Positions 1 through 25,392 of a DNA stretch of 64,000 nucleotides are shown here, piece after piece; within the stretch, counting starts at the first letter, position 1, and each line of letters begins with the position of its first letter. A program made the translations under genes and the position numbers. The stretch is from contig NZ_FXAN01000046.1 in NCBI RefSeq assembly GCF_900176645.1, positions 1-64,000 on the forward strand, given 5' to 3'. The DNA is from Burkholderia singularis (GTDB lineage: Bacteria; Pseudomonadota; Gammaproteobacteria; Burkholderiales; Burkholderiaceae). Below the pieces are notes generated by a model, which saw only the letters and a list, made by a program, of their open reading frames with translations, was not told where the DNA came from and ran no database searches.

Positions 1-149
1 AGCGACGCGTCGAACTGATCCCACGGAATGTCCTTCTCCATGTCCCAGCGGACCGCTTCGAGCGACTTGTAAAGCTCCGGATAAAGCATCATCGCGCGCT
101 TCGTCGAATGGAATGGATATGCGGCGCGCGCACCACGCCGCGCCGGCAT
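1..149 (-). CDS. Ferritin-like diiron-type protein, N-terminal fragment (cut by window edge)
   Basis: Only the first ~49 codons are inside the window; the frame is open to base 1. The reading frame contains MMLYPELYKSLEAVRWD followed by a D-I-P-W motif. This closely parallels the N-terminus of the diiron ferritin-like protein encoded at 10362-11345 (a LY...W-D-x3-D-x2-W pattern), so I read it as a paralogue in the same helical diiron family. The start is uncertain: ATG at 149 lies 8 bp after the desaturase stop and has no clear ribosome binding site, and the paired ATGs at 92 and 89 are alternatives. It lies directly downstream of the desaturase on the same strand and is probably co-transcribed. 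Metal ligands lie outside the window, so the enzymatic role is inference. Confidence 0.6.
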   Translation of the reverse strand, partial: MPARRGARAAYPFHSTKRAMMLYPELYKSLEAVRWDMEKDIPWDQFDAS

Positions 150-156
150 CGCTCAG

Positions 157-1185
157 TCATGCCGACTGTGCGGCGGCGGGCGCAGCCGCGCCGTCCGCGG
201 CCGGGGCGTCATGCGCCTCACTGCCCGCGCTGCCGTGCGCGTTGTCGGGCATATCGTCGATCACGCGCGGCGCGAGCGTGCCGCACAGCAGCGCACGATA
301 AAACTCGCGGTAAGTCGCGTGATAGTGACGAATATGCGGCGCGATCGCGCCATGCAGATCGTGCAGACGCTCGATCGGCAGATTCGGCATCAGGTGATGC
401 TCGACATGATAGTTGTTGCCGTTCGTCAACCACGTCATGAATGCGTTGCTGACGATGGTGCGGGTGTTGACGAAAGCATCGGTGCTGGTCAGATCGCAGC
501 GGTAGTGCTCGGGCATCTCGATCAACGCATGCACGGGCGCCGCAACGAACACGAGCGGCACGAGCCATGCCCAGACGACGAACGCATCGTGTAACGCGAT
601 CGACACGCCCGCCAATATGGCAATCGCGGCTGCCATCAATAGGTAATCCCGACGAATCGCCCGCGACACCAGCGGATTGTCGTTGAAGCGCGCGCCCGGC
701 ACGAACAGCTTGGCGATCTGCTTGACGAACTGCAGATAATGCGCGGCCATCGACAGCCGCCACAGCCACCGCCCCACCGATACGACCGGATTCGCGCCGT
801 ACTGATCGCCGTAATCGAAGAATTCTTTATTGTCGGGGGTGCCGAGCAGACGATGGTGACGCAGATGGCTGTCCTGATACGCGTGAAACGAAACCAGCAT
901 CGGCAGCCCGAGCAGCACGCCAGACACGATATTGAAGCGTTTGTTTCGGAAGCCTTGATAATGCAACGCCTGATGCTGAAGCTCGACGCCATGCGCAAAC
1001 ATCACACCGAGCAGGACGACGCCGAGCACCTTCAGCACGACATGCGGCGACAGCGCGAGCATCGCGCCGTGCACGATCAACGTGGCATAAACGGCAAGCT
1101 TGAGCCCAAAGGCAATGCCGCTCGGCCGACTCTTCAAGTCGACGGACGATTTGAGTCGAGCGGCAAGCGATGACGTGACGGACAA
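157..1185 (-). CDS. Membrane fatty acid desaturase
   Basis: Integral-membrane diiron fatty acid desaturase family, which introduces double bonds or hydroxyls into acyl chains. The three histidine boxes are present: HGVELQHQALH (about residues 65-75), HLRHH (107-111) and HVEHH (260-264), separated by hydrophobic segments. I chose the TTG at 1185 (342 aa) because AAGGAG lies 6 bp upstream of it; the longer frame reaching 1392 has no such site and its extra N-terminus looks non-coding. The gene diverges from the fatty-acyl-AMP ligase operon and precedes a ferritin-like gene. In this context it probably desaturates the acyl chain built by the neighbouring cluster, by analogy with AMP ligase/desaturase/ACP trios of alkyne and polyyne pathways. 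Substrate unknown. Confidence 0.85.
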   Translation of the reverse strand: MSVTSSLAARLKSSVDLKSRPSGIAFGLKLAVYATLIVHGAMLALSPHVVLKVLGVVLLGVMFAHGVELQHQALHYQGFRNKRFNIVSGVLLGLPMLVSFHAYQDSHLRHHRLLGTPDNKEFFDYGDQYGANPVVSVGRWLWRLSMAAHYLQFVKQIAKLFVPGARFNDNPLVSRAIRRDYLLMAAAIAILAGVSIALHDAFVVWAWLVPLVFVAAPVHALIEMPEHYRCDLTSTDAFVNTRTIVSNAFMTWLTNGNNYHVEHHLMPNLPIERLHDLHGAIAPHIRHYHATYREFYRALLCGTLAPRVIDDMPDNAHGSAGSEAHDAPAADGAAAPAAAQSA

Positions 1186-1537
1186 AGCGATCTCCTTGAC
1201 CAGACAGGTCTGGCGCATTTGATACGGCGGCTCGCGCACGACACGGCACGATGTGTCGACGCCCGGATGCGGCCGCGTGTCGGGGTGCATTGTTCTGGGA
1301 GTCGCCCGGCCGTACAAACGAATTTTCCGAACGCATTGCATGACGCCCATGCATGATGCGCACGCCGTCCGTTCACGTAAGCGCACCGTCATCCCGCGTG
1401 GATGCGCTCAACTCATGCATTGATTGCAAAGATTGCGTTTGTCGCGTGCCCGAGATTTGACAAGAATGCCCGTCATTCGCCACACCGCGCCGCCGGTGCC
1501 AGCGTATTGCCGACGTATTCATCAAGGGGGATTCCTC
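1186..1537. promoter_or_regulatory. Divergent intergenic region between desaturase and biosynthetic operon
   Basis: About 350 bp separate the TTG start of the desaturase from the GTG start of the acyl-AMP ligase. Promoters for both directions must lie here. I see no convincing regulator operator, lux box or FNR box, and no pathway-specific regulator gene is present anywhere in the cluster. Confidence 0.5.
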
Positions 1538-3355
1538 GTGACGAAGTGCGCATCCACCATTCATCGCCTGATCGAAGCGCTCGAGAACGTGCGTGGCGCG
1601 CAGCACCAGATGACGTTCGTCGACGAATCGGGCAACGATGCGTCGATTACCTACCGGCAATTTGCGCAACAGGTGTGCCGCCATGCATGCGCATTGCACG
1701 AGCTGGGCGTGCGCGACAACGATATCGTGCTGCTTGCGCTGCCCGCGTCCATCGGGCATGCGGTCGCGATGATGGCGTGCGTGATGACGGGCGCGCTGCC
1801 GTGCACGGTGCCGCCTGCAACGAAGCGCGCGACGGCGTCGCGCCAGGTGGTCGACGTCGCGTGCGAGCTGTACCGCCCCCGCCTCGTGATCGCCGCCGAC
1901 GCCACCGCGCCCGCGTGGCGCGAAGGCGCGTTCGCCGCGACGCGCACGCGCGTCATCGACCCCGCGACACTGGAGGCCGCCGCCGCCTCGGGCGCGCATG
2001 CGCCGATCAGCGCGAAGGCCGGCCGCGATCCGCATCATATCCAGCTCACGTCCGGCTCGACGTCGTATCCGAAAGCCGCGGTGCTGAGCCACGAGAACGT
2101 GATCTCGAACGTACTGGGCATCGGTAGCTCAGTGCGTTTCGACATCGAGCGCGGCGACGGCACCGTGTCGTGGCTGCCGCTCTATCACGACATGGGGCTG
2201 CTGACGCTGCTGTCGAACATGCATTACCGCGCGCCGCTCGTCATGATGCAGCCCAACAGCTTCATCCGCAATCCGCTCGGCTGGCTGAAGAGAATCGCCG
2301 CGGCGCGCGCGACCACCACGTCGGCGCCGACCTTCGCGCTGCGCTATTGCGTGCGGCGCTTCAACGAGACCGCGATGCAAGACGTGGATCTGTCGGCGTG
2401 CCGCAATATCTTCATCGGCGGCGAACGCGTCGATCACTCGACGCTGTGCGACTTCGCCGCGACGTTCGCGCGGTACGGCCTCGACGCGTCCGCGCTGCAG
2501 CCTTGCTACGGCATGGCCGAATCGACGCTCGCGGTTTCGATGCACCGCGCGTGGCATGAGTCGCGCATCGACGGCGCGCCCTACGTGATCGCCGATTCGA
2601 TCGACAAGCGCGCGATGCTCGAGCGGCAAATCGCGCGGCGCGTCGAAATCGACGCCGGTGACGACGCGGCTCAACGCGCGCTCGCGGACCACGAAACGGT
2701 GCTGGCAATGGGCACGCCGATCGACGGCATGGCCATACGCATCGTCGGCCCCGACGGCGTCGCGCGCCCCGAGCGCAGCATTGGCGAAGTGGCGATTCGC
2801 GGCACGTCGCTGATGCTCGGCTATCTGAAGCCGGGCGACGGGACGATCGACGCGCCGCTCACCGCGGACGGCTGGTTTGCGACGGGAGACGTCGGCTACG
2901 TGTCGGACGGCCAGCTCCATATCCTCGGCCGCAAGAAGGAAATCATCATCGTGCGCGGCAGCAACTATTTTCCGCACGAGATCGAGGACGCGATTCTCGT
3001 TCATCCGGCGCTGCGCAAAAGCACCTGCATCGCGTTCGGCGTGGCGGACGACGGGACAGGCACCGAGCGCGTGGTCGTCGTGGTCGAGGCGCGGCCGGCC
3101 GATGCAACGCTCGACACCAGGCTTGCATGCCAGCAGCTGCTCGCGGCGCGAATCGGCTTTGCCGCTCAGGATCTGTGCTTCGTCGAGCCCGGCTCGCTGC
3201 CGCGCACGACGAGCGGCAAGCTGCAACGGCTGAAGTGCCGCGACTTATACGTCGCGGGCGCGCTGCCGACGACGGGCATCTCCGCCGCCGCGGCCGATCC
3301 GCGCTTTGCGCCGCCCATGGCCGAACGCGAAGCGATGCGCGGAGCGCTCGCATGA
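1538..3355 (+). CDS. Fatty-acyl-AMP ligase (FAAL-type adenylate-forming enzyme)
   Basis: ANL-superfamily enzyme of about 605 aa that activates a fatty acid as acyl-AMP, typically for transfer to an acyl carrier protein. Visible motifs are the P-loop LTSGSTSYPKA near residue 168, YGMAEST near 323, GDVGYVSDG near 450 and GRKKEIIIVRG near 464. The early text LPLYHDMGLL and the overall order fit FAAL rather than acyl-CoA synthetase. Start: GTG at 1538, preceded by AAGGGGG; the longer frame to 1424 lacks a site. Its stop overlaps the next ATG (ATGA). As first gene of the operon, and with an ACP at 8556, it probably performs chain loading. Acyl length cannot be read from sequence. Confidence 0.85.
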   Translation: MTKCASTIHRLIEALENVRGAQHQMTFVDESGNDASITYRQFAQQVCRHACALHELGVRDNDIVLLALPASIGHAVAMMACVMTGALPCTVPPATKRATASRQVVDVACELYRPRLVIAADATAPAWREGAFAATRTRVIDPATLEAAAASGAHAPISAKAGRDPHHIQLTSGSTSYPKAAVLSHENVISNVLGIGSSVRFDIERGDGTVSWLPLYHDMGLLTLLSNMHYRAPLVMMQPNSFIRNPLGWLKRIAAARATTTSAPTFALRYCVRRFNETAMQDVDLSACRNIFIGGERVDHSTLCDFAATFARYGLDASALQPCYGMAESTLAVSMHRAWHESRIDGAPYVIADSIDKRAMLERQIARRVEIDAGDDAAQRALADHETVLAMGTPIDGMAIRIVGPDGVARPERSIGEVAIRGTSLMLGYLKPGDGTIDAPLTADGWFATGDVGYVSDGQLHILGRKKEIIIVRGSNYFPHEIEDAILVHPALRKSTCIAFGVADDGTGTERVVVVVEARPADATLDTRLACQQLLAARIGFAAQDLCFVEPGSLPRTTSGKLQRLKCRDLYVAGALPTTGISAAAADPRFAPPMAEREAMRGALA

Positions 3356-4089
3356 CGCAGCCCGGCCTGAGCATGCCCCAAGCGGCGACGGGTGCCGCCC
3401 CCGTGCTCGAGCTGCGCGACGTGTCGCGCGAATACGCGGGCGCGGCGCGCGTGGTCGCCGTGCGCAGCGCTACGCTGTCGATCGGGCGCGGCGACGTCGT
3501 CGCGCTGGTCGGCCCGTCGGGCAGCGGCAAAAGCACGCTGCTCAATCTCGCAGGCTTTCTCGACGTGCCGACGTCCGGCACGCGCTGGCTCGAAGGCCGG
3601 CAGATCGACGATGCGCCGGCCACGCTCGAAGCCGTGCGCCGCGAGCGGATCGGTTTCGTGTTCCAGCATTTCAACCTGATTCCCGTGCTGTCGGCCATCG
3701 AGAACGTCGAACTTGGCTGCTTCGCGCAAGGCACGCCGCGCACGCGCCGCGAACGCGCACGCGCGATGCTCGACGCACTCGGCCTGGCGGCGCGCGAGCG
3801 GCACCGGCCAACCGAATTGTCGGGCGGCGAGCAGCAGCGCGTCGCGCTTGCGCGCGCGCTCGTGAAGGAGCCGGCGATCGTGATCGCCGACGAGCCCACC
3901 GCGAGCCTCGACAGCGCGAACGCGCATGCCGTGGCCGAACTCGTGCTGACGATCAACCGCACGTTCGGCACGGCCTTTCTGATCGCGTCGCACGACGAAC
4001 GTCTGTGCGCGCGCCTGCCGCAACGCATCGAGATGCGCGACGGCATACCGGGAGCAAACCGTGAACTGGTCGATGTTTGCGTGGCGTAA
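3352..4089 (+). CDS. ABC transporter ATPase, LolD/MacB family
   Basis: 245-aa ATP-binding subunit. Walker A GPSGSGKST lies near residue 54, the Q-loop in FVFQHFNLIP, the signature LSGGEQQR near 155 and the Walker B IVIADEP with the following TASLD. These are hallmarks of the LolD/MacB/FtsE branch, which works with FtsX-fold permeases to move lipids, lipoproteins or hydrophobic compounds out of the inner membrane. It overlaps the ligase by ATGA and the permease by 29 bp. It probably forms an export machine with the next three genes, carrying the cluster product rather than serving housekeeping lipoprotein sorting (inference from context). Confidence 0.9.
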   Translation: MTQPGLSMPQAATGAAPVLELRDVSREYAGAARVVAVRSATLSIGRGDVVALVGPSGSGKSTLLNLAGFLDVPTSGTRWLEGRQIDDAPATLEAVRRERIGFVFQHFNLIPVLSAIENVELGCFAQGTPRTRRERARAMLDALGLAARERHRPTELSGGEQQRVALARALVKEPAIVIADEPTASLDSANAHAVAELVLTINRTFGTAFLIASHDERLCARLPQRIEMRDGIPGANRELVDVCVA

Positions 4090-5278
4090 TCTCTGGCGCA
4101 ACTCGCGCCGCACCGTGCTGACGATGGCGATGATCGGCGTGGCCGCGTTCGCCGCGAGCATCGCGCTCGGCTATGTGATCGCGACGTTCGACGCGGTACG
4201 CGAAGGCTCGATCGACAGCGGCGTCGGGCACGTGCAGGTGATGCATCGCGGCTATCTCGATCTGATCGGCGAGCGGCCGCTGCAATACGGGCTCACCGCC
4301 GACGAGCAGGCCGCCGCGCGGCGCGCGCTCGCCTCGCTGCCGGGCGTGGCGACCACGGCCCGCGAAATCGACTTCGACGGCCTGATCTCGAACGGCGATC
4401 TGAGCTACGGCTTCGTCGGCGTCGGCGTCGAGCCGCAGCGCGAGCCGCCGGGCTATTTCGATTACCACGCGGTGCAAGCCGGCCGCTATCTCGCGCCCGC
4501 GGGCGCGGGCACCGAACTGGTCGTCGGCGCGGAGTTGGCGCGCAAGCTCGGCGTGCACGTCGGCTCGGTCGTGCAGCTGATGGCATCGACCGCGCACGGC
4601 GGCATCAACGCGACGGATGCGCAGATCGTCGGCGTGATGAGCACCGGCAACAAGGATGTCGACGAACGGATCGTCAACGTGACGCTGCCGGCCGCGCAAG
4701 CGCTGCTGCGCACCGACCGGATCTCGCGCGTGGCCGTGTTCCTCGATCGCACCCGCGCGACGCCCGCCGCGGCGGCCACGCTGCGCGGCGCGCTGCCCGC
4801 GCTCGACGTGCGCACCTGGGATCAGCTCGTATCGCTGTACCACCAGGTGGTCTCGCTGTACCGCAACCAGTTTTCCGTATTCGGCGCGATTCTGTCGGTG
4901 ACGATTCTGCTGTCGATGAGCAACTGGATTCTGATGAGCATCGTCGAGCGGCGCCGTGAGATTTCGACGCTGCGCGCGCTCGGCGTGCCCGCCGGCACCG
5001 TGCGCGGCGTGCTGATCCGAGAAACCGCCCTGCTCGGCTTGCTCGGCGCGGCAACCGGCATCGCAGCCGCGCTGCTCGCAATGCTCGCGCTGAACCACGC
5101 GCAAATCCATCTGCCGCCGCCTCCCGGCCGCGTCAAGCCGATCCTGCTCGAATTCGCGGTGTCGCCGGCGGCGCTCGCGATCGTCGAGGGCGCGTTCATC
5201 GCGCTCGGCGTCGCGGCCGCCGGCCTCGCCACCGCCGGGCTCGCCAAGCGAAACATCCTCGAAGGACTCGCGTCATGA
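4061..5278 (+). CDS. FtsX-family ABC permease (LolC/E, MacB-like)
   Basis: 405 aa. One N-terminal membrane helix (about residues 20-40) follows the basic WRNLWRNSRRT start, then comes a long periplasmic domain, then three C-terminal helices starting at about residue 265. This is the four-helix FtsX/MacB fold. The segment VERRREISTLRALG after the second helix is typical of this permease family. Start: GTG at 4061 with a GGGAG site upstream, inside the end of the ATPase gene. It probably dimerises and extracts a lipid substrate from the inner membrane for hand-off to the LolA-like protein encoded next. Confidence 0.88.
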   Translation: MNWSMFAWRNLWRNSRRTVLTMAMIGVAAFAASIALGYVIATFDAVREGSIDSGVGHVQVMHRGYLDLIGERPLQYGLTADEQAAARRALASLPGVATTAREIDFDGLISNGDLSYGFVGVGVEPQREPPGYFDYHAVQAGRYLAPAGAGTELVVGAELARKLGVHVGSVVQLMASTAHGGINATDAQIVGVMSTGNKDVDERIVNVTLPAAQALLRTDRISRVAVFLDRTRATPAAAATLRGALPALDVRTWDQLVSLYHQVVSLYRNQFSVFGAILSVTILLSMSNWILMSIVERRREISTLRALGVPAGTVRGVLIRETALLGLLGAATGIAAALLAMLALNHAQIHLPPPPGRVKPILLEFAVSPAALAIVEGAFIALGVAAAGLATAGLAKRNILEGLAS

Positions 5279-6036
5279 TCTACCCCCGTATTACGCCGCG
5301 CTCGGCCGCCTTCGCCGTTGCCTTCGCGCTCGCCGTCAGCACGGCCGCCCACGCGTCCGAGCCGCCCAGCGCCCAGGCGCTGCTGGCGCGCGCGGATGCG
5401 TACCGGAGCACCTCGTCCGATACGCAAACCCAGATCCGGATCACCAATCTCGTAAGCGGCCAGCCCAACGACGCGACGCGCTATCTCGTCTACACACGCG
5501 GCAACGGCGATACGCTCGCGCTGACGAAGAGCGGCGAAAACAGCGGCCAGAAATATCTGGCGACCACGCTGGGCCACTGGTTCTACGTGCCGAACACCCG
5601 CAGCGCCGTGCGCATCAACGGCATGCAGCGGCTGCAAGGCGAAGTCGTGATCAGCGACATCACGCGCACGCACTGGGCCGACAGCTACCGGGCAACGGCC
5701 GCGCCGGGCACGACGACGATCGGCGGCAAGAGCGCCACCGAACTCGATTTGAGCGCGGCCGATCCGGACAACGTGTATCCGACGATCAAGCTGTGGATCG
5801 CGGCGGATTCCGACGCGCCCGTGCGCGCGCAATTCTTCCTGGCGAGCGGGCTGCTGTTTCGCAGCGCGGATTTTTCCGCGCCGGTCGTCGTCAACGGCCG
5901 CCAGGTGATCCGCCAGATCACGTACCGCAATGAAGTCGAGAAGCAGCGCGCGAGCGTCGTCGATATCCTCGACGGCGAGCCGCACCGGATTCCGTCGGGC
6001 TGGTTCAACCCCGACACGCTCGCCGATGGCCATTGA
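5275..6036 (+). CDS. LolA-like periplasmic outer-membrane lipoprotein-sorting protein
   Basis: 253 aa with an N-terminal signal peptide (hydrophobic stretch ending in A-H-A-S near residue 28). The mature part has the alternating beta-strand pattern and the GHWFYVPNTRSAVRI / GEVVISDITRTHW segments of the COG2834 'outer membrane lipoprotein-sorting protein' family, which shares the LolA half-barrel fold. Its ATG overlaps the permease stop. Proteins of this family commonly sit next to FtsX- or MMPL-type exporters and ferry hydrophobic cargo through the periplasm. Here it links the inner-membrane ABC unit to the outer-membrane barrel that follows. Cargo is inferred to be the cluster product. Confidence 0.82.
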   Translation: MIYPRITPRSAAFAVAFALAVSTAAHASEPPSAQALLARADAYRSTSSDTQTQIRITNLVSGQPNDATRYLVYTRGNGDTLALTKSGENSGQKYLATTLGHWFYVPNTRSAVRINGMQRLQGEVVISDITRTHWADSYRATAAPGTTTIGGKSATELDLSAADPDNVYPTIKLWIAADSDAPVRAQFFLASGLLFRSADFSAPVVVNGRQVIRQITYRNEVEKQRASVVDILDGEPHRIPSGWFNPDTLADGH

Positions 6037-7360
6037 GGCAAACCGCGATGCAAAGCGCGCTCGTTCATCCTCCCCGCCGGTCGCCGCGACACGCCGTCCG
6101 TGGCGACGTTGCGCTGCGCTCTGGCTGCCAGTTGCGCTTGCGTGCCACTGCGGCATCGCGCAAGCAGACACGTTGATGGATCAGCTCGCGACCCTCAACG
6201 GCATCGGCTACGCCCGCTCGGTCGACTTTACGGGCGGCCGCGCGCTGCTGTCGAACCTGCTCGGCAGCGAGCCGCGCGCGCATCAGGAAATCGGCGCGAT
6301 CGTGCGGATCGACGGCGATAACCTGTTCGTGAACGCGCGCGCCGTCGCGAGCGACCACTCGCTCGGCGCTCAGGCGTCGCGCTTGAACGAAGCCGGCGTG
6401 CGCTACGCGTTCGACGACGGCTTCACCGTCACGGCCGGCAAGCGGATCGACACGCTAGACACGTCGCAGGCGTTCTTTCCGCTTGGCTTCTTCCAGAAGC
6501 GCCCGTCGACGGCCGATATCTACGACCGCTACGGCGACGTGGAAGGCACGCCGCTCGTCGAGGCCAAATGGGTCGGCGAGCGCGCGACGCTGCAATTGAT
6601 TGCCGGCCAGAACCGCACGTTGAGGCGCGACGTCGACAATCGCGAGGTCAGCGGCGCGACGCAGATCCTGCGCGGCGCGACCCAGTGGCCGGGCGGCTCC
6701 GCCGCGCTGCTGTTCGGCCGCCACGCCGGCCGCGGCGGCGCGGGCGCGACGCTGTCGTTCGACGTCGGCGCATCCAGCACGGTGTACGCGAGCAGTTGGA
6801 TCGAGCGCGGCTCCACTCGGCCGGTGCCCGCGTTCATCACGCACGGCACGCCGTTCGATGCGCAACACGCATACGACGCCGTCGATCGCCGCGGCGATCG
6901 CCAATACATGTGGCGCAGCGCGCTCGGCATGCAAAGCGCGCTGCCCGGCAATCTGTCGCTGATCGTCGAATGGTCGCACGACGAGGCGCGCTTCGACGCG
7001 AGCCAGTGGCGCCAGCTCACCGCCGCGATCCGCGCGAACAACGCGCGGCTGGCCGCCGCGCCGGGCGCGGCGCTGGCCGGGCTCGGCGCGACGGCGAACT
7101 ACGTCAGCGTCGACGGCAGCCTGCGCGACTACTTTTTCGCGCGGCTCGGCAAGAAGATCGGGCGCGTCGAGTACTCGGTGCGCGGCGTCTACTCGCCGCA
7201 GGACAAAGGCTTGCTCGCGATCGCGCAGGCCGTCGCCGATATCGGCAAGCGCACAAGCGTCGACATCGCCGTCACCCATGCATTCGCCAGCGCCGGCTCC
7301 GAATACCGGGCAATCGGCCTTAGCACCGAAATCGACGCCGCCCTGCGCGTGCGCTTCTGA
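6026..7360 (+). CDS. Outer-membrane beta-barrel protein of the export module
   Basis: About 444 aa. A basic N-terminus and hydrophobic stretch end in GIAQADT, consistent with secretion. The rest shows amphipathic alternation and ends in ALRVRF, with the terminal Phe typical of outer-membrane barrels. I do not recognise a named family with certainty; it resembles DUF-type porin-like proteins found next to COG2834 proteins. The ATG at 6026 overlaps the LolA-like stop. With the three preceding genes it completes an inner membrane-periplasm-outer membrane route. Alternative: an ordinary porin-like protein recruited to the locus. Confidence 0.72.
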   Translation: MAIEANRDAKRARSSSPPVAATRRPWRRCAALWLPVALACHCGIAQADTLMDQLATLNGIGYARSVDFTGGRALLSNLLGSEPRAHQEIGAIVRIDGDNLFVNARAVASDHSLGAQASRLNEAGVRYAFDDGFTVTAGKRIDTLDTSQAFFPLGFFQKRPSTADIYDRYGDVEGTPLVEAKWVGERATLQLIAGQNRTLRRDVDNREVSGATQILRGATQWPGGSAALLFGRHAGRGGAGATLSFDVGASSTVYASSWIERGSTRPVPAFITHGTPFDAQHAYDAVDRRGDRQYMWRSALGMQSALPGNLSLIVEWSHDEARFDASQWRQLTAAIRANNARLAAAPGAALAGLGATANYVSVDGSLRDYFFARLGKKIGRVEYSVRGVYSPQDKGLLAIAQAVADIGKRTSVDIAVTHAFASAGSEYRAIGLSTEIDAALRVRF

Positions 7361-8462: not shown

Positions 8463-8474
8463 CCGGCCGTTCCC

Positions 8475-8498
8475 GATTCCGATTCCGATTCCGATTCA
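8475..8498. repeat. Hexanucleotide GATTCC microsatellite
   Basis: Three perfect GATTCC units plus a fourth ending in A, in the 93-bp gap between the dehydrogenase-like gene and the ACP gene. It lies about 60 bp upstream of the ACP start, so unit changes would alter the leader but not a reading frame. Related degenerate GATTCC units recur at 25440-25570. Confidence 0.85.
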
Positions 8499-9714: not shown

Positions 9715-9715
9715 C

Positions 9716-13508: not shown

Positions 13509-13530
13509 CCCCATCCACGAGGAGTCGACC

Positions 13531-18052: not shown

Positions 18053-18053
18053 C

Positions 18054-19310
18054 ATGGACATGAACACGGACACGACCGCCCTGCGCCCGGAACCCGCCGA
18101 CGCTCCCCCTCGCAACCTGCTCGGCCGCCCTGCCACCCGCCATCGCGGCACCGACATCGACGGCGCGACGCTCGCGCCCGACGAGGCGCTGCGCGTGCGC
18201 AGCGTCGATCTGAACGCGTTGATCGGCGCGGTGACGTTCGAAGGCGCGCTCGCGCATCTGTGGTTCGACGTCGCGCCCGGCAGCAGCGCGCATACGGCGC
18301 GCGAAACCGCGATCCGCGAACGGCTCGCCGCGCACGCGGCGGCGTTCGCGCGCGGCTCGGCCGCGCAGGACGTCGCCGCCGGCATGGGCGCGGCCGGCGT
18401 CGCGCCGGTGTTTGCCGCCGCCGCCGGCCTGCTGCGCGGGCTCGACGATGCGCTTGGCCGGCTCGCCGCCGATCCGCGCTGCGACGCCGACCTCGACGCG
18501 ATGCTCGCGTGCGCGGCCGTGGCGCCGTTGCTGCTGCACGCGGCCATCGAAGGGCGGCCTTACGCCGCGGCCGCGTCCGCCGCCGGCGATACCCTGCGCG
18601 ACCCTGCCGCCACCCAGGCGCAGCGCATGCTCGCGCTGACCGGCGCGACGCGCCGCGGCCCGGCCGCCGACGCGGCCATGGACGCGTTGCTCGTCGCGTG
18701 GCACGCGGGCTTTGGCTACATCACGCCGACCGTGCTCGCGCCGCGCGTGGCGATCGGCACCGGCGTGACGCTGGTGCAGGCGGTCGCGGCGGGCTTCATG
18801 GCGAGTGGCCCGTCGCACGTCGGGGCGGCGCTCGAAGCAATGGGCTGGCTCGCGACGCTCGCTGCCGCCGCCACGTCCGAGCCCGCCGTCCCGGCCGCGC
18901 GCGAGACGCTCGAAGCGGCCGCGCGCGCGGCGATCGACGACGATCTCGACGCCAAGCGCACGCTGTACGGCTTCGGTCATCCGCTTTTCGTCGCCGATCC
19001 GCGCCCGCCGCACCTGCGCCGGCTATTCGCCGCACGCGGCTTCGACGGCCCGTATCTGACGCTGTTCGACGCGTGCTGCGCGCACGCCGACGCACGCCGC
19101 GGACTGCACCCCAACATCGATTTCCTGACCGCCGCCGCGCTGCTCGAACTCGGCGTCGCCGCGCCGTCGTGGGGCGTCGGCGTCGGCCTCGGCGCGCGCA
19201 TCGCCGCGATGTGCGCGCATGCGCTCGAGCGCCGCCAGCGGCCGGCGTTCGGCGTCAACAGCGCAACCGCGCGGCGCCTGCTCGCCGCCGTGCCGGTCGG
19301 CTGGCTCTGA
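18054..19310 (+). CDS. Citrate synthase-family protein
   Basis: 418 aa. The C-terminal two-thirds carries citrate-synthase landmarks: SGPSHVGAALEAM (first histidine region), GFGHPLFVADPRPPHL (the G-x-G-H...DPR box) and NIDFLTAAAL (the catalytic Asp box). The N-terminal part is Ala-rich and diverged. Such proteins condense acetyl- or acyl-CoA with 2-oxoacids or, in citryl-CoA-lyase-like forms, cleave them. A citrate-synthase homologue inside a biosynthetic operon suggests a Claisen step that adds a carboxylated branch. It starts 1 bp after the dehydrogenase stop. Confidence 0.75.
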   Translation: MDMNTDTTALRPEPADAPPRNLLGRPATRHRGTDIDGATLAPDEALRVRSVDLNALIGAVTFEGALAHLWFDVAPGSSAHTARETAIRERLAAHAAAFARGSAAQDVAAGMGAAGVAPVFAAAAGLLRGLDDALGRLAADPRCDADLDAMLACAAVAPLLLHAAIEGRPYAAAASAAGDTLRDPAATQAQRMLALTGATRRGPAADAAMDALLVAWHAGFGYITPTVLAPRVAIGTGVTLVQAVAAGFMASGPSHVGAALEAMGWLATLAAAATSEPAVPAARETLEAAARAAIDDDLDAKRTLYGFGHPLFVADPRPPHLRRLFAARGFDGPYLTLFDACCAHADARRGLHPNIDFLTAAALLELGVAAPSWGVGVGLGARIAAMCAHALERRQRPAFGVNSATARRLLAAVPVGWL

Positions 19311-19360: not shown

Positions 19361-20023
19361 ATGCTGCTCAAGAATCTGCGTCCGGCCAACGACTACGACC
19401 GCTTCGCCACCGAAACGCTCGAACCGTGGGATCTGCTGTTCATCAGCCGCATCCGCCAGCTCGCCCGCGGGATGAACGCGGGCGTGATCGCCGATATCGG
19501 CACGGCAACGGGCGTCGTGCCGGTCCGGCTGGCGGCCGATCCGGCGATGGCCGGCTGGCGCTACGTCGGCATCGACCTCGACCCGGCCATGCTCGACGAA
19601 GGCCGCCCGCGCATCCATGCGCTCGGCCTGGACGACGTCATCGAGCTGCGGGTCGGCGACGCGCTCGCACTGCCGTTCGACGACGGCGAATTGACGATGG
19701 CGGTGGGCCGCGCGACGCTGCACCACTTGCCGGACAAAGCACTCAGCCTGACCGAGATGTTCCGCGTGCTGCAACCGGGCGGCGTCGCGCTGGTTCACGA
19801 CATGCGGCGCGATGCGCCCCAGCACCTGCTCGATCGCTTCACCGCGATGCGCGCGGCGGCCGACTATCCGCCGACTCACGTCGAGGAGAAGATCACGCTC
19901 GACGAAGCGCACGCGCTCGTCGCGCAGGCCGGCCTCGCGGCGCACGCGTCGATCTACAGCCCGAGCGCCGGGCTCGGCGCACTCGGCTTCGAAATCCTGC
20001 TGAAAAAACCCGCGCTTGCGTAA
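19361..20023 (+). CDS. SAM-dependent class I methyltransferase
   Basis: 220 aa. Motif I is VIADIGTATGVVPVRLA, followed by the acidic loop YVGIDLDPAML, then GDALALPFDDGELTMAV and the motif after strand 5, LQPGGVALVHDM. This is the UbiE/Methyltransf_11 type, methylating a small molecule at O, N or C. ATG follows GAGGAACGAC. Acceptor unknown; position between the citrate-synthase-like and TauD-like genes suggests late tailoring. Confidence 0.85.
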   Translation: MLLKNLRPANDYDRFATETLEPWDLLFISRIRQLARGMNAGVIADIGTATGVVPVRLAADPAMAGWRYVGIDLDPAMLDEGRPRIHALGLDDVIELRVGDALALPFDDGELTMAVGRATLHHLPDKALSLTEMFRVLQPGGVALVHDMRRDAPQHLLDRFTAMRAAADYPPTHVEEKITLDEAHALVAQAGLAAHASIYSPSAGLGALGFEILLKKPALA

Positions 20024-20027: not shown

Positions 20028-21098
20028 ATGCCGACTCCCGCCCCGCTTGCCGGCGGTGCCGCCGCGCTGTTCGACGACGACCGCGTCGCATGCGCGCCGC
20101 TCGTCGAGCACGCCGCGCTGCCGCTTTGCATCACGCCGCGCGATCCCGCGCTCGCGGCGTCGCCCGACGCATTCGCCGCGTGGTACGGCGCGCGGCTTGC
20201 CGACATCGACCGGCTGCTCGACGGGCGCGGCGCGCTGTTGTGGCGCGGTTTCGCCGTGCCCGACACCGCCGCGTTCGGCCGCCTCGGCGCGCTCTATCCG
20301 CCGCACGCGAACGGCTACACCGCGGGAGCCGCACCGCGCCGCCAAATCGCCGGCGAAGTATACGAATCGACGCGGATGCCCCCGCCGTTCAAGATCGGCT
20401 TGCATCAGGAGATGGCCTATATGCCGGTGTTTCCCCGGCTCGTCGCGTTCTATTGCCGGCGGCCGGCCGACGCGGGCGGCGAGACGCCGATTTGCGACAT
20501 GCGCCGCGTGACCGCGCGAATTCCGGCCGCGCTGCGCGAGCGCTTCGCCGCGCGTGGCGTGATGTATCTGCGCAACTTCGCCGCGCCGGGCGAACGGGCG
20601 GCCAGCAGCAACCGGCCGGGCATGGCGTTCGGCGAATACCACCGGCCGTGGGACGACGCATTCGGCACCGCCGAGCGCGCCGACGTCGAACGGCTGTGCG
20701 CGGCACGCGGGCTCGGCTGCCGCTGGCTCGACGACGGCAGCGTGACCGTGTCGCACGTCGGCCCCGCGCTGCGCACGCATCCGCGCACCGGCGACGTGCT
20801 GTGGTTCAACCAGGCGAGCGCGCAGCATCCGAACCCCCGCTCGATGGGCGATTTCAGCTATCGGCAATTGCAGCGCGTATTCGGCGGCCGCGCCGCGTTT
20901 CCATACGAGGTCCGCTACGGCGACGGCACGCCGATGCCGTTCGACGATCTCGTCCCCATCTACGATGCGTTCGATAGCGAGGAAATCGCGTTCCCGTGGC
21001 AGGCGGGCGACGTGCTCGTCGTCGACAACATGCTGGTCGCGCACGGCCGCAACCCGTACCGGGGCGCGCGCGACACGCAAGTGATGCTGTTCGACTGA
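20028..21098 (+). CDS. TauD/SyrP-type Fe(II)/2-oxoglutarate oxygenase
   Basis: 356 aa. The iron triad is readable as GLHQEMAY (H126, E128, an H-x-E rather than H-x-D facial pair) and a distal histidine in LVAHGRNPYRGARDTQVML, with the RGAR segment carrying the 2-oxoglutarate-binding arginine. The H-x-E variant and the phrase ETPICDMRRV are typical of the SyrP-like branch, which hydroxylates carrier-bound amino acids. ATG lies 5 bp after the methyltransferase stop. Probably a late beta- or alpha-hydroxylase. A decarboxylating, isonitrile-forming role of related enzymes is an alternative. Confidence 0.82.
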   Translation: MPTPAPLAGGAAALFDDDRVACAPLVEHAALPLCITPRDPALAASPDAFAAWYGARLADIDRLLDGRGALLWRGFAVPDTAAFGRLGALYPPHANGYTAGAAPRRQIAGEVYESTRMPPPFKIGLHQEMAYMPVFPRLVAFYCRRPADAGGETPICDMRRVTARIPAALRERFAARGVMYLRNFAAPGERAASSNRPGMAFGEYHRPWDDAFGTAERADVERLCAARGLGCRWLDDGSVTVSHVGPALRTHPRTGDVLWFNQASAQHPNPRSMGDFSYRQLQRVFGGRAAFPYEVRYGDGTPMPFDDLVPIYDAFDSEEIAFPWQAGDVLVVDNMLVAHGRNPYRGARDTQVMLFD

Positions 21099-21102
21099 GC
21101 GG

Positions 21103-22125
21103 ATGCCGCCGATGAGTGTGTCCTTTCCCGCCCTGCTGCGCGCGATACTCGATCCGCGCCACGCATTCGACTGGCCCCGGCTGTTCGGCACGCAGCAGCC
21201 GCCCGCGCGGCACGCGCCGCAAGCCGCGCTGAGCGCGGCCGCGATCGACGTCGCGGCGGGCGATTTCCGTTTCGTTGCACACGACGTGCGCTTTCGCCTG
21301 GGCGCGGTCACCGCGATCGTCGGGCCCAACGGCGCGGGCAAGAGCACGCTGCTCGAGACGCTGCTCGGCTTTCGGCGCGGCGGCCGCGACGTGCGCGTGC
21401 TCGATGCGCCCGCGCCGCGCTTCATGCGCGAACCTGCTTCGCTGCGCCGGCTCGGCGCGCAACTGCAGAAGGTCGAATATCCGGATCATGCGCGCGTCGA
21501 CGAAATCGTCGCGCTGCATCGCGCGATGTACCGCCGCGCGGACCCGGACGTCACCGCCGCGCTCGGCATCGGCGAGCTGCTCGGCAAGCCGTGCCGCGCG
21601 TTGTCGAAAGGGCAGCGCCAGCGCGTCGATCTCTACGTCGCGCTCGCGCACCGGCCCGAGCTGGCCGTGCTCGACGAGCCGTTCACCGGCCTCGACCGGC
21701 GGTATGCGGGCGCCGTCACCGGGCTGCTGCGCGCGCGCGCCGCAGCCACCAGCGTCGCGATGATCTGCCACAGCGCCGACGAGCTTGCGCTCGTCGACGA
21801 TCTCGTCTGGGTCCGCGACGGCGGCATCCGCTACCAGGGCGCCAAGGACGCGCTGATAGCGGCGAGCGTCGGCCGCGCGCGCGCCGCGCTGCACTGCCGC
21901 GACGCCGCCGAGGCCCGCGCGCTGCGCGCGCGGCTCGCCGGGTTGCCGGGCGTCGTCAACGTTCGCGCGCCGCAGCCGCTCGTTGCCGAAGCGTTCGGCG
22001 ACGCGACGCTTCACGCGCGCGTGCATGCGCTCGTCGGCGAACAGGGCATTCAGCATCTGGAACTCGCGCCCAGTACGCTCGAGGATCTGCTGCGCGTATG
22101 CACGGAGGGGCCACGCGATGCTTAA
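21103..22125 (+). CDS. ABC transporter ATPase (ABC-2 type exporter)
   Basis: 340 aa. A ~60-residue leader precedes the nucleotide-binding domain: Walker A IVGPNGAGKSTLLETLLG, signature LSKGQRQRVDLYVALA and Walker B LAVLDEPFTGLD. The C-terminal ~90 residues form an extension with alternating Ala/Arg/Leu text, typical of antibiotic and polysaccharide exporters. It starts 4 bp after the oxygenase stop and overlaps its permease by 8 bp. It is a second, distinct exporter of the cluster alongside the LolCD-like one. Confidence 0.88.
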   Translation: MPPMSVSFPALLRAILDPRHAFDWPRLFGTQQPPARHAPQAALSAAAIDVAAGDFRFVAHDVRFRLGAVTAIVGPNGAGKSTLLETLLGFRRGGRDVRVLDAPAPRFMREPASLRRLGAQLQKVEYPDHARVDEIVALHRAMYRRADPDVTAALGIGELLGKPCRALSKGQRQRVDLYVALAHRPELAVLDEPFTGLDRRYAGAVTGLLRARAAATSVAMICHSADELALVDDLVWVRDGGIRYQGAKDALIAASVGRARAALHCRDAAEARALRARLAGLPGVVNVRAPQPLVAEAFGDATLHARVHALVGEQGIQHLELAPSTLEDLLRVCTEGPRDA

Positions 22126-23203
22126 GGTATTCGCAATCCTGGTGCGCAACGAGCTGCTCGGCTTTCTGCGCAGCCGCTCGTCGCTGTTCTGGACGCTCGT
22201 CTTTCCGGTGTTCTTGCTCAGCGTGATGCTGTTCGCATTCGGCGGCTCGAACTCGCTCGGCACTGTCGACATCGCATTCGATGCGCCCGGCGGCACGACG
22301 CCGTACCGTGACGCGTGCCGTGCCGAAATCGTCGCGAGCCTGGCGCGCAGCGACGTCGTCAAGGCAACGATCGTCGCCGCGGGCGCGCGCGGCAGCGCCG
22401 AACGCGTCAACGTCGTGCTCGGCGCCGACGCGCACACGCCCGCGACGATACGCTACGACTTCAACGGCTCGCTCGCCGCGAAAGCCGCATCGCGGGTGAT
22501 CGAGATCGCGCTCGCGCGCTGCGCCGCGCAAGGGCTCGGCCTGCCCGCCGAGCCGGCGCGCTTCGAGAACGCCGCGCCCGAGCGTCGTGCATTCGACTAC
22601 GGCGCATTCTTCGCAACCGGCATTCTCGTGATGGCGTTCATGGCGATCGGCTTGAATTCCACCGCGACCGCAATCGCCGCGCTGCGCGAGCGCAACACGT
22701 TCAAGCTCTATGTCTGCTTTCCGGTGTCGCGCGGCGTGTTCCTCGGCGCGCTGATCGTCGCGCGCATGGCGATGATGGCGCTGTCCGCCGTGGTGCTGCT
22801 CGCGGTTGCGCGCTTCGCGTTCGGCATCGCATTGCCGATCGTCTCGCCTGCCGGGCTGCGCGCGCTGCCGGTCGTGCTGCTCGGCGCGGCGATGGTGCTG
22901 AGCTTCGGCGTGCTGCTCGCGAGCCGCGCGCAGTCGCTTGCCGCCGCCGAGCTTGCGTGCAACGTCACGTACTATCCGCTGCTGTTCTTCAGCGATCTGA
23001 CGATTCCCATGCACGATGCGCCGTCCTGGCTCAAGGCCGCGCTCGCGTTCCTGCCGACCAATCAGTTCGCGGTCGCGCTGCGCGGCCTGCTGCTCGACGG
23101 CGCGCAGTATGCGCAGTTCGCGCCGCAGCTTGCCGGCATGGCGGCAAGCACGCTGCTGTTCCTGTTCGTGTCCGCGCGCCTGTTCCGTTGGCACGACGCA
23201 TGA
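22118..23203 (+). CDS. ABC-2 type permease
   Basis: 361 aa. N-terminal helix SSLFWTLVFPVFLLSVMLF, a soluble ~130-residue loop, then five closely spaced hydrophobic helices from about residue 165, ending before a short basic tail. The order matches ABC-2 (DrrB/NatB-like) permeases with a long extracytoplasmic loop. It pairs with the overlapping ATPase. Likely role: efflux of the product or of a toxic intermediate. Confidence 0.87.
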   Translation: MLKVFAILVRNELLGFLRSRSSLFWTLVFPVFLLSVMLFAFGGSNSLGTVDIAFDAPGGTTPYRDACRAEIVASLARSDVVKATIVAAGARGSAERVNVVLGADAHTPATIRYDFNGSLAAKAASRVIEIALARCAAQGLGLPAEPARFENAAPERRAFDYGAFFATGILVMAFMAIGLNSTATAIAALRERNTFKLYVCFPVSRGVFLGALIVARMAMMALSAVVLLAVARFAFGIALPIVSPAGLRALPVVLLGAAMVLSFGVLLASRAQSLAAAELACNVTYYPLLFFSDLTIPMHDAPSWLKAALAFLPTNQFAVALRGLLLDGAQYAQFAPQLAGMAASTLLFLFVSARLFRWHDA

Positions 23204-23237
23204 GCATCCATTCGCTTTCCTGAAGGAGAAACGCCCG

Positions 23238-23783
23238 ATGACCCCCTCCCGCCATCCGCTCACCGACTACCTGCTGCATGCGAGCAACTTTCTGCCGGCG
23301 ATCGTGTTTCTGTTCTACGGCCGGCTCGGCCCCGGCCAGCCGGACGAGCGCTGGACCCATGCGTTCCTGATCGGCGGCGGGCTCGCGCTCGCGCATGGCG
23401 CATGGCTGCTGCGCCGCGCCGAGCGCAACAGCATCGCGATCGGCGTCGACCTGTTTCTCGTGATCGGCGCGTTGCTCGCGCTCGTGTCGCCGGCCGGCAG
23501 CCGCTTATGGGGCGAGGAACTCGGCCCGGCCGCGATGCTCGTCTGCGTGCTCGCGGTAGGCGTCGCGCTGACCGCGTGGTCCGCCGGCGGCTTCGTCGAC
23601 GGCGCATGCGCCGAGCACCAGCGCGTGCGCGCGTTGTCGTTCGTGATGATCGTCGCCACGGTCGTCGCGCTCGGCGTGTCGATCGCGATGCGCCACAGCC
23701 CGCTGTGGGGCGGCGTCGTGCCGTTGATCGCGCTCGTCGTCGTGCGCGGCCGGCTGCGCCGCCAACTCGCGCAGGTTCACTGA
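23238..23783 (+). CDS. Small polytopic membrane protein, unknown
   Basis: 181 aa, ATG preceded by AAGGAGAAA. About five hydrophobic helices are separated by short charged turns; no motif is recognisable. It directly follows the ABC-2 permease and may be an accessory subunit or an immunity-like membrane protein. I do not recognise the family. Confidence 0.7.
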   Translation: MTPSRHPLTDYLLHASNFLPAIVFLFYGRLGPGQPDERWTHAFLIGGGLALAHGAWLLRRAERNSIAIGVDLFLVIGALLALVSPAGSRLWGEELGPAAMLVCVLAVGVALTAWSAGGFVDGACAEHQRVRALSFVMIVATVVALGVSIAMRHSPLWGGVVPLIALVVVRGRLRRQLAQVH

Positions 23784-23784
23784 C

Positions 23785-25392
23785 ATGGGCGCTCCGACCG
23801 AAACGGTTGAAACGGCGCGTGTGGTTCGGCCAGCCGATGCGCACGTAACGGCGCATGTGGCCCGGCCAACCGATGCGCTTGAATCGGCGCACGCGGCCCA
23901 GCCGGCCGATACGCACGTAACTGCGCATGCGGCTCGGCAAGCCAACGCACGCGAAACGGCAAAAATGACTCAACCGCCCGATACATACCCGACAGCGCCT
24001 ACGGCACCACAAGCCGCCGCGCTCGCCGCCGCACTCGGCGACGGCTGGCTCGAGGGCAGCGCAGGCGCGCCCTATCTGACCGACATCATGCAGATCAGCG
24101 GCGCAGCGCTCGGCGTCGCGCGGCCCGCATCGACCGCCGATGCCCAGGCGCTCGTACAAGCCGCGCATACCCATCGCATCACGCTCGTCCCGCAGGGCGC
24201 GCGCACCGGGCTGGTCGGCGCGGCAGTACCCGATCGCAGCGGTGCGCAATGTGTCGTATCGTTCGACCGGATGCGTCGCATTCGCGCGCTCGACGTCGCG
24301 AACCGCAGCATCACGGTCGACGCGGGCGTGCTGCTGTCCGAGCTGAACCGCGCGGCGGCCGAGGCCGGGCTCACCCTGCCGATCGATCTCGGCAGCGATC
24401 CGAGCGCGGGCGGCCTGGTCGGCGCGAATGCGGGCGGCAGTCGGCTCATCAAATATGGCGACGTGCGCCGCAACGTGCTAGGCATCGAAGCCGTGCTCGC
24501 CGATGCGCACGGCACGGTGATCGACGCCCTCGCGCCGCTGCGCAAACGCAACGCCGGTTTCGATCTGAAGCAGTTGTTCATCGGCGCGGGCGGCGCGCTC
24601 GGGCTCGTCACCGCAGTCTCGTTCTCGCTTGCGCCGCTTGAACGCTCGTCTTACGCGGCGCTCGTCGCGTTCGCCTCCTATGACGCCGCGCTCGCGGGCC
24701 TGCTCGCGTTCGAGCGGGCGTTCGGCGAACTGCTGTGCGCATTCGAGTTCATGTCGTCCCGTGCCATCGCGCGCGCCGCCGCGGCGTTTCCCAATCTGTC
24801 GGTCCCGCTGCCGGATACGCCTGCCGCGTGCTTCGCGCTCGTCGAGATCGCCTCCGGCATGCCCGGTCTGGACGCGCTGTTGGAAACGCGCGCGCTCGAC
24901 ACGCTCGATGCGCTCGTCGGCCGCGGCGACGCGCTGGACGCCGCCTGCGCCACCGCCGAGCGTTTCTGGCGGCTGCGCGACAGCCTGCCTGCCGCCGTCG
25001 CGCAGGATGGCCTGCCGCTGTCGTTCGACGTATCGTTCGCGCGCGGCGCGCTTGCGCCGTTCATCGCCGATACCGAACGCTGGCTGGCCGACACGCATCC
25101 GGCGCTCGGTTGCTACGCGTTCGGCCATTTCGGCGACGGCGGCTGCCATCTCGTCGTATCGATTCCGCATGCATGCGCCGAGCAATACGGCGCGGTACGG
25201 CAAATCGCGCTGCGCGGCGCGCTGTACGAACGCGTCGCGCGCTTCGGCGGCTGCTTCAGCGCCGAGCACGGCGTCGGCCCCGCCAATCTCGCGTATTACC
25301 GCAAATATGTGCGCGCCGAAGAGCGGGCTGCCGCATCCGCCGTTCAATGCGCGCTCGACCCGCTGCGGCTCGTCGGACGCGTTCGCTATTGA
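23785..25392 (+). CDS. FAD-linked oxidase, GlcD/D-2-hydroxyacid dehydrogenase family, with N-terminal repeats
   Basis: 535 aa. From about residue 80 the protein follows the FAD_binding_4/FAD-oxidase C-terminal fold: ITLVPQGARTGLVGAAVP (FAD pyrophosphate loop), GLVGANAGGSRLIKYGDV, GAGGALGLVTAVSF, and the C-terminal FSAEHGVGPANL box. Relatives oxidise D-lactate, glycolate or other 2-hydroxyacids. The first ~75 residues are unusual: five 12-residue repeats (residues 12-71) of the R/H-x-A-R-P-x-D-A-H-V-T-A kind, with no counterpart in the family. The true start could be later, e.g. M61. It begins 2 bp after the membrane-protein stop, so it is probably the last enzyme of the operon. Confidence 0.85.
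   Translation: MGAPTETVETARVVRPADAHVTAHVARPTDALESAHAAQPADTHVTAHAARQANARETAKMTQPPDTYPTAPTAPQAAALAAALGDGWLEGSAGAPYLTDIMQISGAALGVARPASTADAQALVQAAHTHRITLVPQGARTGLVGAAVPDRSGAQCVVSFDRMRRIRALDVANRSITVDAGVLLSELNRAAAEAGLTLPIDLGSDPSAGGLVGANAGGSRLIKYGDVRRNVLGIEAVLADAHGTVIDALAPLRKRNAGFDLKQLFIGAGGALGLVTAVSFSLAPLERSSYAALVAFASYDAALAGLLAFERAFGELLCAFEFMSSRAIARAAAAFPNLSVPLPDTPAACFALVEIASGMPGLDALLETRALDTLDALVGRGDALDAACATAERFWRLRDSLPAAVAQDGLPLSFDVSFARGALAPFIADTERWLADTHPALGCYAFGHFGDGGCHLVVSIPHACAEQYGAVRQIALRGALYERVARFGGCFSAEHGVGPANLAYYRKYVRAEERAAASAVQCALDPLRLVGRVRY
23818..23997 (+). repeat. Five imperfect 36-bp tandem repeats inside the FAD oxidase gene
   Basis: Five consecutive units each encode 12 residues; aligned units begin CGTGTGGTTCGGCCAGCCGA, CATGTGGCCCGGCCAACCGA, CACGCGGCCCAGCCGGCCGA, CATGCGGCTCGGCAAGCCAA and AAAATGACTCAACCGCCCGA. 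Unit length is a multiple of three, so copy change would keep the frame. A minisatellite of this kind is expected to vary between strains. Confidence 0.85.

What the first reader, a model, noticed from the sequence alone, without database searches (positions are those of the whole stretch)
1..25392. Unassigned acyl-carrier biosynthetic cluster with two exporters
A run of ~20 genes with overlapping or few-base spacing combines a fatty-acyl-AMP ligase, discrete ACP, three KAS III-like proteins, group IV PLP decarboxylase, second AMP ligase, two dehydrogenases, citrate-synthase-like protein, ferritin-like diiron proteins, TauD-type oxygenase, methyltransferase, desaturase and FAD oxidase. I know no published pathway with this combination. 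There is no modular NRPS or PKS, no thioesterase, no PPTase and no dedicated regulator. The composition points to a nitrogen-containing modified fatty acid.
Basis: partly seen in the sequence, partly recalled or inferred. Interest (0 to 1): 0.85.

Follow-up and report, generated by a model that had tools for sequence, protein, structure and literature searches.

The report
Known antifungal lipopeptide (afc) gene cluster
The genes are the already described afc cluster, which makes the plant-fungus-killing lipopeptide AFC-BC11 without a classical assembly-line enzyme, here most likely in Burkholderia singularis; the find is real but ordinary.

Summary
It is the afc cluster of Burkholderia, whose product, the antifungal N-acyl tetrapeptide AFC-BC11, was solved and partly rebuilt in vitro in 2025 (PMC12186527). 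All 23 genes lie in the same order in two complete Burkholderia records at 64-94% protein identity. Published key residues are kept: AfcK Ser40; AfcL Cys111 (exactly 111 in 9 of 11 cepacia-complex orthologs); AfcQ Arg and Lys 192 apart. The genome fits B. singularis LMG 28154T. Small additions: compact afc-like clusters in Pseudomonas and Chromobacterium lack the first exporter; AfcE and AfcS are one protein in all six Pseudomonas loci seen; AfcJ models as an acyl-CoA/ACP dehydrogenase and is absent from a genome with a bolagladin-type cluster, which fits a role in making the dehydro-beta-alanine trimer. Status: already known, low interest.

The parts
1..95 (-). start of afcD (putative acyl-ACP desaturase, published as dispensable); cut by the contig end
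   Evidence: tblastn: residues 4-34 of L048 AfcD at 95..3, 87%
157..1392 (-). afcC: membrane desaturase, published to desaturate the C-terminal Lys
   Evidence: Pfam FA_desaturase 3.1e-38; 74-78% to L049/L048; His boxes HQALH, HLRHH, HVEHH
1466..3355 (+). afcA: fatty acyl-AMP ligase
   Evidence: Pfam AMP-binding; NCBIfam FAAL subfamily 9.8e-102, below its cut-off; 74-75%
3352..5278 (+). first exporter: ABC ATPase 3352-4089 and MacB/FtsX permease 4061-5278 (two of afcB/G/H; letters inferred)
   Evidence: Pfam ABC_tran, FtsX, MacB_PCD; 83-87%
5275..6036 (+). LolA-like outer-membrane lipoprotein-sorting protein (one of afcB/G/H; letter inferred)
   Evidence: Pfam LolA_like 2.8e-22; 85-86%
6026..7360 (+). 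afcI: outer-membrane protein (letter inferred from position and published role)
   Evidence: no significant Pfam hit; 73-74% ortholog in the same place
7374..8462 (+). afcJ: acyl-CoA/ACP-dehydrogenase fold
   Evidence: AlphaFold2 mean pLDDT 80; 276 PDB matches at E<=0.001, top TcsD 7.5e-08, TM-scores only 0.4-0.6 in the 50 rows shown; E342 of EGSSYR invariant in 17 of 17 rows
8556..8810 (+). afcK: the sole carrier protein, Ser40
   Evidence: Pfam PP-binding 1e-06; S40 invariant in 24 of 24 rows
8818..9714 (+). afcL: KAS III-like peptidyl transferase; Cys118 = published Cys111
   Evidence: C118 and H245 invariant in 23 of 23 rows; the aligned Cys is residue 111 in 9 of 11 cepacia-complex orthologs, 113 and 125 in the two with other starts
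9716..10360 (+). afcM: essential by published deletion, function unknown
   Evidence: 64% ortholog; model pLDDT 71, no PDB match at E<=0.001
10362..11345 (+). afcN: diiron AurF/acyl-ACP-desaturase-like protein
   Evidence: Pfam AurF 1.3e-12; DEARH and DESRH motifs; 91%
11348..12337 (+). afcO: KAS III-like, Cys130
   Evidence: Pfam ACP_syn_III_C 8.8e-05, below cut-off; C130 invariant in 23 of 23 rows; solved KAS III 4dfe 5.2e-08
12327..13508 (+). afcP: PLP-dependent decarboxylase
   Evidence: Pfam Orn_DAP_Arg_deC 1.6e-10; 80-81%
13486..15102 (+). afcQ: VinN-type Asp-activating adenylation enzyme; R322 and K514 = published R311 and K503
   Evidence: R322 and K514 invariant in 11 of 11 usable rows, common offset of 11; solved structure 3wvn 5.3e-58 (that 3wvn is VinN is recalled)
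15099..16208 (+). afcR: KAS III-like with Thr162 at the active-site place
   Evidence: T in 23 of 24 rows, Ser in L002
16205..18052 (+). afcE: acyl-CoA-dehydrogenase-type, proposed beta-Ala to dehydro-beta-Ala
   Evidence: Pfam Acyl-CoA_dh (on the longer ORF); 89-90%; EGTNYI at 445
18054..19310 (+). afcS: citrate-synthase-like, malate/citrate end of the acyl chain
   Evidence: Pfam Citrate_synt 2.1e-23; 75-77%
19361..20023 (+). afcT: SAM O-methyltransferase
   Evidence: Pfam Methyltransf_11 2.1e-16; 91-92%
20028..21098 (+). afcU: TauD-type oxygenase
   Evidence: Pfam TauD 2.7e-35 (on the longer ORF from 20016); 79%
21103..23203 (+). second exporter: ABC ATPase 21103-22125 and ABC-2 permease 22118-23203 (two of afcV/W/X; letters inferred)
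   Evidence: Pfam ABC_tran, ABC2_membrane_3 (longer ORF); 73-85%
23238..23783 (+). small membrane protein (one of afcV/W/X; letter inferred)
   Evidence: no significant Pfam hit; 81-82%
23785..25392 (+). afcF: FAD-linked oxidoreductase; last gene of the cluster
   Evidence: Pfam FAD-oxidase_C 2.7e-29; 73-75%

Best explanation
This is the afc cluster of Burkholderia (24 genes plus the LysR regulator shvR), carried by a genome that fits B. singularis, making AFC-BC11 or a very close analogue. Steps published for orthologs (PMC12186527): AfcQ adenylates the side-chain carboxyl of L-Asp and loads it on the carrier AfcK; AfcP decarboxylates it to beta-Ala; AfcQ adds the next Asp to the free amine, so the chain grows without condensation domains; AfcA activates a C14 acyl chain and caps the trimer; [quoted passage not shown] AfcS, AfcF and AfcT are needed for the O-methyl-malate end; AfcC desaturates the Lys. 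Inferred, here or there: AfcE, I think with AfcJ, turns the three beta-Ala into dehydro-beta-Ala; AfcN, AfcO and AfcR, shared with the bolagladin-type cluster, act on the acyl chain or the first beta-Ala; two transporter systems carry the product across the envelope; ShvR switches the operons on (published for B. cenocepacia).
For: 23 of 23 genes in the same order in L048 (B. cenocepacia) and L049 (B. arboris), 64-94% identity. 20 of 20 genes within reach in L002, B. puraquae CAMPA 1040; the paper used B. puraquae DSM 103137 as an afc strain (that the two are one type strain is recalled). Counting from afcF as BCAS0201, the ABC ATPase is 4th, citrate synthase 7th, AfcE 8th and ShvR 25th, as the published BCAS0204, 0207, 0208 and 0225. 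Published residues kept. A ShvR ortholog at 80%, and the two ends of AfcD at the ends of contigs C66 and C122.
Against: No metabolite data for B. singularis were found: the species paper, searched by terms only, holds no 'afc'. The middle of afcD is not in either contig end read and was not sought elsewhere, so afcD could be broken; it is published as dispensable. AfcM is the least conserved (64%). The letters of afcB/G/H/I and V/W/X are inferred by order, since the paper's Table S2 was not seen. AfcL's profile showed no detectable match to AfcO or AfcR. AfcJ's role rests on fold (modest TM-scores) and absence only.
Confidence: 0.95

Rival explanations
1. A new, unassigned pathway for a nitrogen-containing fatty acid.
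For: The enzyme set is unusual and has no NRPS/PKS modules.
Against: Same order, near-complete gene set and same key residues as the solved afc cluster.
Confidence: 0.02
2. A bolagladin-type (bol) cluster.
For: Eleven afc genes (D, E, F, N, O, P, Q, R, S, T, U) have 57-90% relatives at one locus in G024, taken here as bol.
Against: That locus holds an NRPS with 4 C and 4 A domains; the window's cluster has none and has J, L and M, which were not found in G024.
Confidence: 0.01
3. An afc cluster that makes an altered or no product in this strain (silent or decayed).
For: The species is outside the cepacia complex; the middle of afcD is not seen; no product is reported in what was read.
Against: All 23 whole frames are open with 64-94% identity, and ShvR is kept.
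Confidence: 0.12

Closest known systems
afc cluster / AFC-BC11 of the Burkholderia cepacia complex (PMC12186527; PMC6301696)
   Same: All 23 window genes, order, divergent afcC, key residues, shvR beyond afcD.
   Different: Host in the pseudomallei species group, 64-94% protein identity; the assembly is broken inside afcD.
Bolagladin (bol) cluster of B. gladioli (PMC7756342)
   Different: Has a tetramodular NRPS; AfcJ, AfcL and AfcM not found in that genome; one dehydro-beta-Ala instead of three.
Compact afc-like clusters in Pseudomonas and Chromobacterium (L013-L022) and in unnamed Burkholderia genome G046
   Same: afcA, J-R, E, S in order in 10 of 10 loci; T and U in 9 of 10 (L018 ends before them); the same set in G046.
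   Different: No MacB/LolA/OM exporter genes between afcA and afcJ; no close AfcC in the 6 genomes searched, though a distant desaturase (26-27%) lies near AfcF in two Chromobacterium; AfcE-AfcS fused in 6 of 6 Pseudomonas loci.

Membership tests
afc / AFC-BC11 cluster | 24 genes in two divergent operons next to shvR | tested here: met
   23 whole genes plus the two ends of afcD; ShvR ortholog beyond afcD on contig C122; the physical link of the two contigs is inferred
afc / AFC-BC11 cluster | Positions of ABC (BCAS0204), citrate synthase (0207), AfcE (0208) and ShvR (0225) | tested here: met
   4th, 7th, 8th and 25th counted from afcF, if afcF is BCAS0201
afc / AFC-BC11 cluster | Sole carrier AfcK with Ser40 | tested here: met
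   S40, 24 of 24 rows
afc / AFC-BC11 cluster | AfcQ Arg311 and Lys503 | tested here: met
   R322 and K514, 192 apart as published; 11 of 11 usable rows; the other loci gave no usable frame in my script
afc / AFC-BC11 cluster | AfcL catalytic Cys111 | tested here: met
   C118, 23 of 23 rows; residue 111 in 9 of 11 cepacia-complex orthologs
afc / AFC-BC11 cluster | AfcR with Thr in its triad | tested here: met
   T162 at the motif GQNGTLG; T in 23 of 24 rows, Ser in L002; its His and Glu were not mapped
afc / AFC-BC11 cluster | No NRPS condensation domain | tested here: met
   None in Pfam scans of the 23 genes
afc / AFC-BC11 cluster | Production of AFC-BC11 | not testable with these tools
   Needs mass spectrometry
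bolagladin cluster | Tetramodular NRPS BolH | tested here: not met
   Absent from the window's 23 genes; present at the G024 locus

The most novel reading that the evidence does not exclude
The afc pathway is a wider, modular family than described in what I read. A compact version without AfcC, without the first exporter and with AfcE fused to AfcS occurs in Pseudomonas and would make Lys-ended (not dehydro-Lys) analogues; an unfused version occurs in Chromobacterium, where a distant desaturase may stand in for AfcC. The genes missing from the bolagladin-type genome (J, L, M, and perhaps A, which was not tested genome-wide) would form a portable unit for condensation-free beta-peptide trimerisation and release, with AfcJ as a second carrier-bound beta-alanyl dehydrogenase needed beyond the single unit of bolagladin.
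Probability: 0.4. Interest if true: 0.4.

Novelty: already known. Interest (0 to 1): 0.15.

Why it matters
It closes the finding: the cluster has a name, a solved product and a largely worked-out mechanism. The useful remainder is comparative: which genes the bolagladin-type locus shares and which it lacks narrows the roles of the enzymes the 2025 study left open (AfcJ, M, N, O, R), and compact relatives in environmental Pseudomonas offer other places to test them.

Tried and rejected
Fragin reading: only a recalled lead; no fragin genes were compared, and afc matched on every gene. Distant loci (24 of the 46 hits, L023-L046) as afc relatives: rejected; profile searches found no KAS III-like, citrate synthase or carrier match at E<=0.001, only AfcN in 24 of 24, with FAAL/AMP-ligase/dehydrogenase matches in some, a distant decarboxylase in L023 and single weak hits in L043 and L045. 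AfcM as glycosyltransferase (the paper's label): no PDB match at E<=0.001; the 50 weak rows shown (best 0.23) are mostly aminotransferases, dihydrofolate reductases and some thiolase-fold enzymes, not enough to assign. Profile comparison inside the cluster linked AfcO with AfcR (68-72%) and gave nothing for AfcJ, AfcL or AfcM above 5%. Kang et al. 1998 could not be read. The 2025 supplement was not available.

Caveats: my ortholog caller missed frames in several loci (AfcQ usable in 10 of 24 loci plus the window; L017's 31-residue fragment was dropped before the count). Only 10 of the 22 core loci's genomes were searched for AfcC and AfcF. AfcA and AfcK were not searched genome-wide in G024; in the 32 kb fetched, AfcK gave no hit and AfcA only 24%.
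Full report
Observation. Gene calling by codon-position composition and in-frame starts gives 23 whole open genes between 157 and 25392: 22 rightward with gaps of -29 to +93 bp and one leftward. One dehydrogenase (7374-8462) and two of three KAS III-like proteins show no significant family hit; the dehydrogenase was settled by a predicted fold and a weak profile match to solved acyl-CoA dehydrogenases, the other two by correspondence with the published AfcL and AfcR.

Where it comes from. The window's assembly has 5,538,112 bases in 135 contigs. Burkholderia singularis LMG 28154T is published with 135 contigs and 5.54 Mb, and Burkholderia sp. TSV86 as a near relative, ANI 94.4 (PMC5592201, passages seen); TSV86 is the closest locus found (99% for AfcN). 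The name is therefore an inference from size, contig count and kinship. NCBI places the species in the pseudomallei group. The window begins at a contig end.

What it is. A relative search with the AfcN protein gave 46 loci; in 22 of these 46 (L001-L022) afcA, J-R, E and S are found in order. In two complete records, L048 (B. cenocepacia) and L049 (B. arboris), all 23 of 23 genes lie in one order at 64-94% identity. In L048 they are followed beyond afcC by AfcD (9098-9964) and a LysR regulator (7486-8478). This is the afc cluster with shvR. The 2018 study (PMC6301696, passages seen) gives BCAS0204 as ABC transporter, BCAS0207 as citrate synthase, BCAS0208 as afcE, BCAS0225 as shvR, and 24 afc genes in two divergent operons; counted from afcF, these fall 4th, 7th, 8th and 25th here. 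In the window's own genome the ShvR ortholog (80%) lies at C122:35460-36383. The last bases of that 37,132-base contig encode AfcD residues 249-280, and window bases 95-3 encode residues 4-34. The middle of AfcD was not sought in the rest of the genome.

Residue tests. The 2025 paper (PMC12186527, parts 1-4 of 5 read) names AfcK Ser40, AfcL Cys111, AfcQ Arg311 and Lys503, and a Thr/His/Glu triad in AfcR. Here: S40 (24 of 24 rows); C118 (23 of 23 rows), which is residue 111 in 9 of 11 cepacia-complex orthologs; R322 and K514, 192 apart as published (11 of 11 usable rows); T162 (T in 23 of 24 rows; Ser in B. puraquae L002).

How it works. Published for orthologs: AfcQ/AfcK load L-Asp, AfcP decarboxylates, AfcQ elongates on the amine, AfcA caps the trimer with a C14 acyl chain, AfcL passes the chain to Lys-CoA, AfcS/AfcF/AfcT are needed for the O-methyl-malate end, AfcC desaturates Lys; deletions of afcJ, L, M, N, O, P and shvR stop production while afcD and afcI are dispensable. 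Against one detail, the 2018 paper cites BCAS0207 (afcS) as dispensable for antifungal activity; the 2025 afcS mutant made truncated compounds, so the two can both hold. Added here by inference. (1) AfcJ models as an acyl-CoA/ACP dehydrogenase (pLDDT 80; 276 PDB matches at E<=0.001, among them TcsD and ColB1, the latter titled as catalysing assembly-line-tethered cysteine dehydrogenation; TM-scores 0.4-0.6 in the 50 rows shown), and the Glu of EGSSYR, like that of EGTNYI in AfcE, is kept; that this is the catalytic Glu of the family is recalled. (2) A locus in G024, taken as bol because it has a 4C/4A NRPS, carries relatives of D, E, F, N, O, P, Q, R, S, T and U at 57-90%, while AfcJ, AfcL and AfcM were not found in that whole genome at E<=0.001. 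Bolagladin has one dehydro-beta-Ala, attributed to BolQ, and an NRPS (PMC7756342, part 2 and passages). So J, L and M go with the trimer and the Lys release, and N, O and R with the shared acyl end or first beta-Ala. The 2025 paper says that a role of AfcJ in dehydrogenation cannot be excluded; this comparison leans towards it but does not show it.

Relatives outside the cepacia complex. All six Pseudomonas loci with the core (L013-L017, L019) encode AfcE and AfcS as one protein of 998-1000 aa (the two halves were checked by alignment in L014 only); in the four Chromobacterium and 14 Burkholderiaceae loci AfcE is 615-630 aa. The MacB/LolA/OM genes are missing between afcA and afcJ in all ten Pseudomonas and Chromobacterium loci. 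Of these, two Pseudomonas and four Chromobacterium genomes were searched: all six have an AfcF relative (E 1e-129 or better), near the cluster or on another contig, and none has an AfcC relative better than 1e-7. Against a simple loss of desaturation, in two Chromobacterium genomes (those of L018 and L021) the weak AfcC relative (26-27%) lies next to AfcF, and a similar distant one follows AfcF in the bol-type locus. G046 has the same compact form, without an AfcF hit in the 32 kb fetched; a shorter cluster in B. pseudomallei and B. mallei is already in print. AfcR relatives at E<=1e-20 occur in 21 of 65 Burkholderia genomes searched. The 24 more distant loci share AfcN, some also FAAL, AMP ligase or dehydrogenase, and are not afc.

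In print? Paper searches found the afc and bolagladin papers; no listing described an afc-type product from Pseudomonas or Chromobacterium, but only open-licence papers are held, most listings were judged by title and abstract start, and the 2025 supplement, which tabulates afc distribution, was not seen.

Verdict. Already known: the orthologous cluster with solved product and partial in vitro reconstitution was published in 2025. Interest is low; the comparative hints on AfcJ and the compact Pseudomonas form are modest leads.

Noticed in passing
L013-L017, L019 (Pseudomonas): AfcE and AfcS are one protein of about 1000 aa in all six Pseudomonas loci, although they are proposed to act at different ends of the product (halves aligned in L014 only).
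   Followed up: partly
genome G003 (Robbsia andropogonis, holds L011), C2:271592-272683: The afcC relative beside the afc cluster (56%) carries three in-frame stops, so Lys desaturation may be lost there.
   Followed up: no
L060 5706-7307 and L061 678-2210: Similar-looking genes (by their first residues, aldehyde-dehydrogenase-like) lie within two genes of afcF in a Pseudomonas and a Chromobacterium cluster; possibly extra members of the compact form.
   Followed up: no
genomes G007 (holds L018) C169:1546-2205 and G009 (holds L021) C105:1576-2232: A distant desaturase (26-27% to AfcC) lies within about 350 bp of AfcF in two Chromobacterium genomes.
   Followed up: no
window 38000-50000: Stretch of lower GC (53-60%; most of the window is 61-74%) with, by the look of their first residues, an ABC polysaccharide exporter pair (46680-48188, 48172-48975) and long leftward frames; looks like a surface-polysaccharide island.
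   Followed up: no
window 27622-37078: Molybdopterin oxidoreductase, TetR and LysR/PBP-type regulators, then a formate-dehydrogenase-like set (2Fe-2S thioredoxin-like, Nuo51-like, large molybdopterin subunit).
   Followed up: partly
L023, L025, L028 (Streptomyces): A different cluster with FAAL, two AMP-ligase-type hits, an AfcN relative (39%) and a dehydrogenase.
   Followed up: partly
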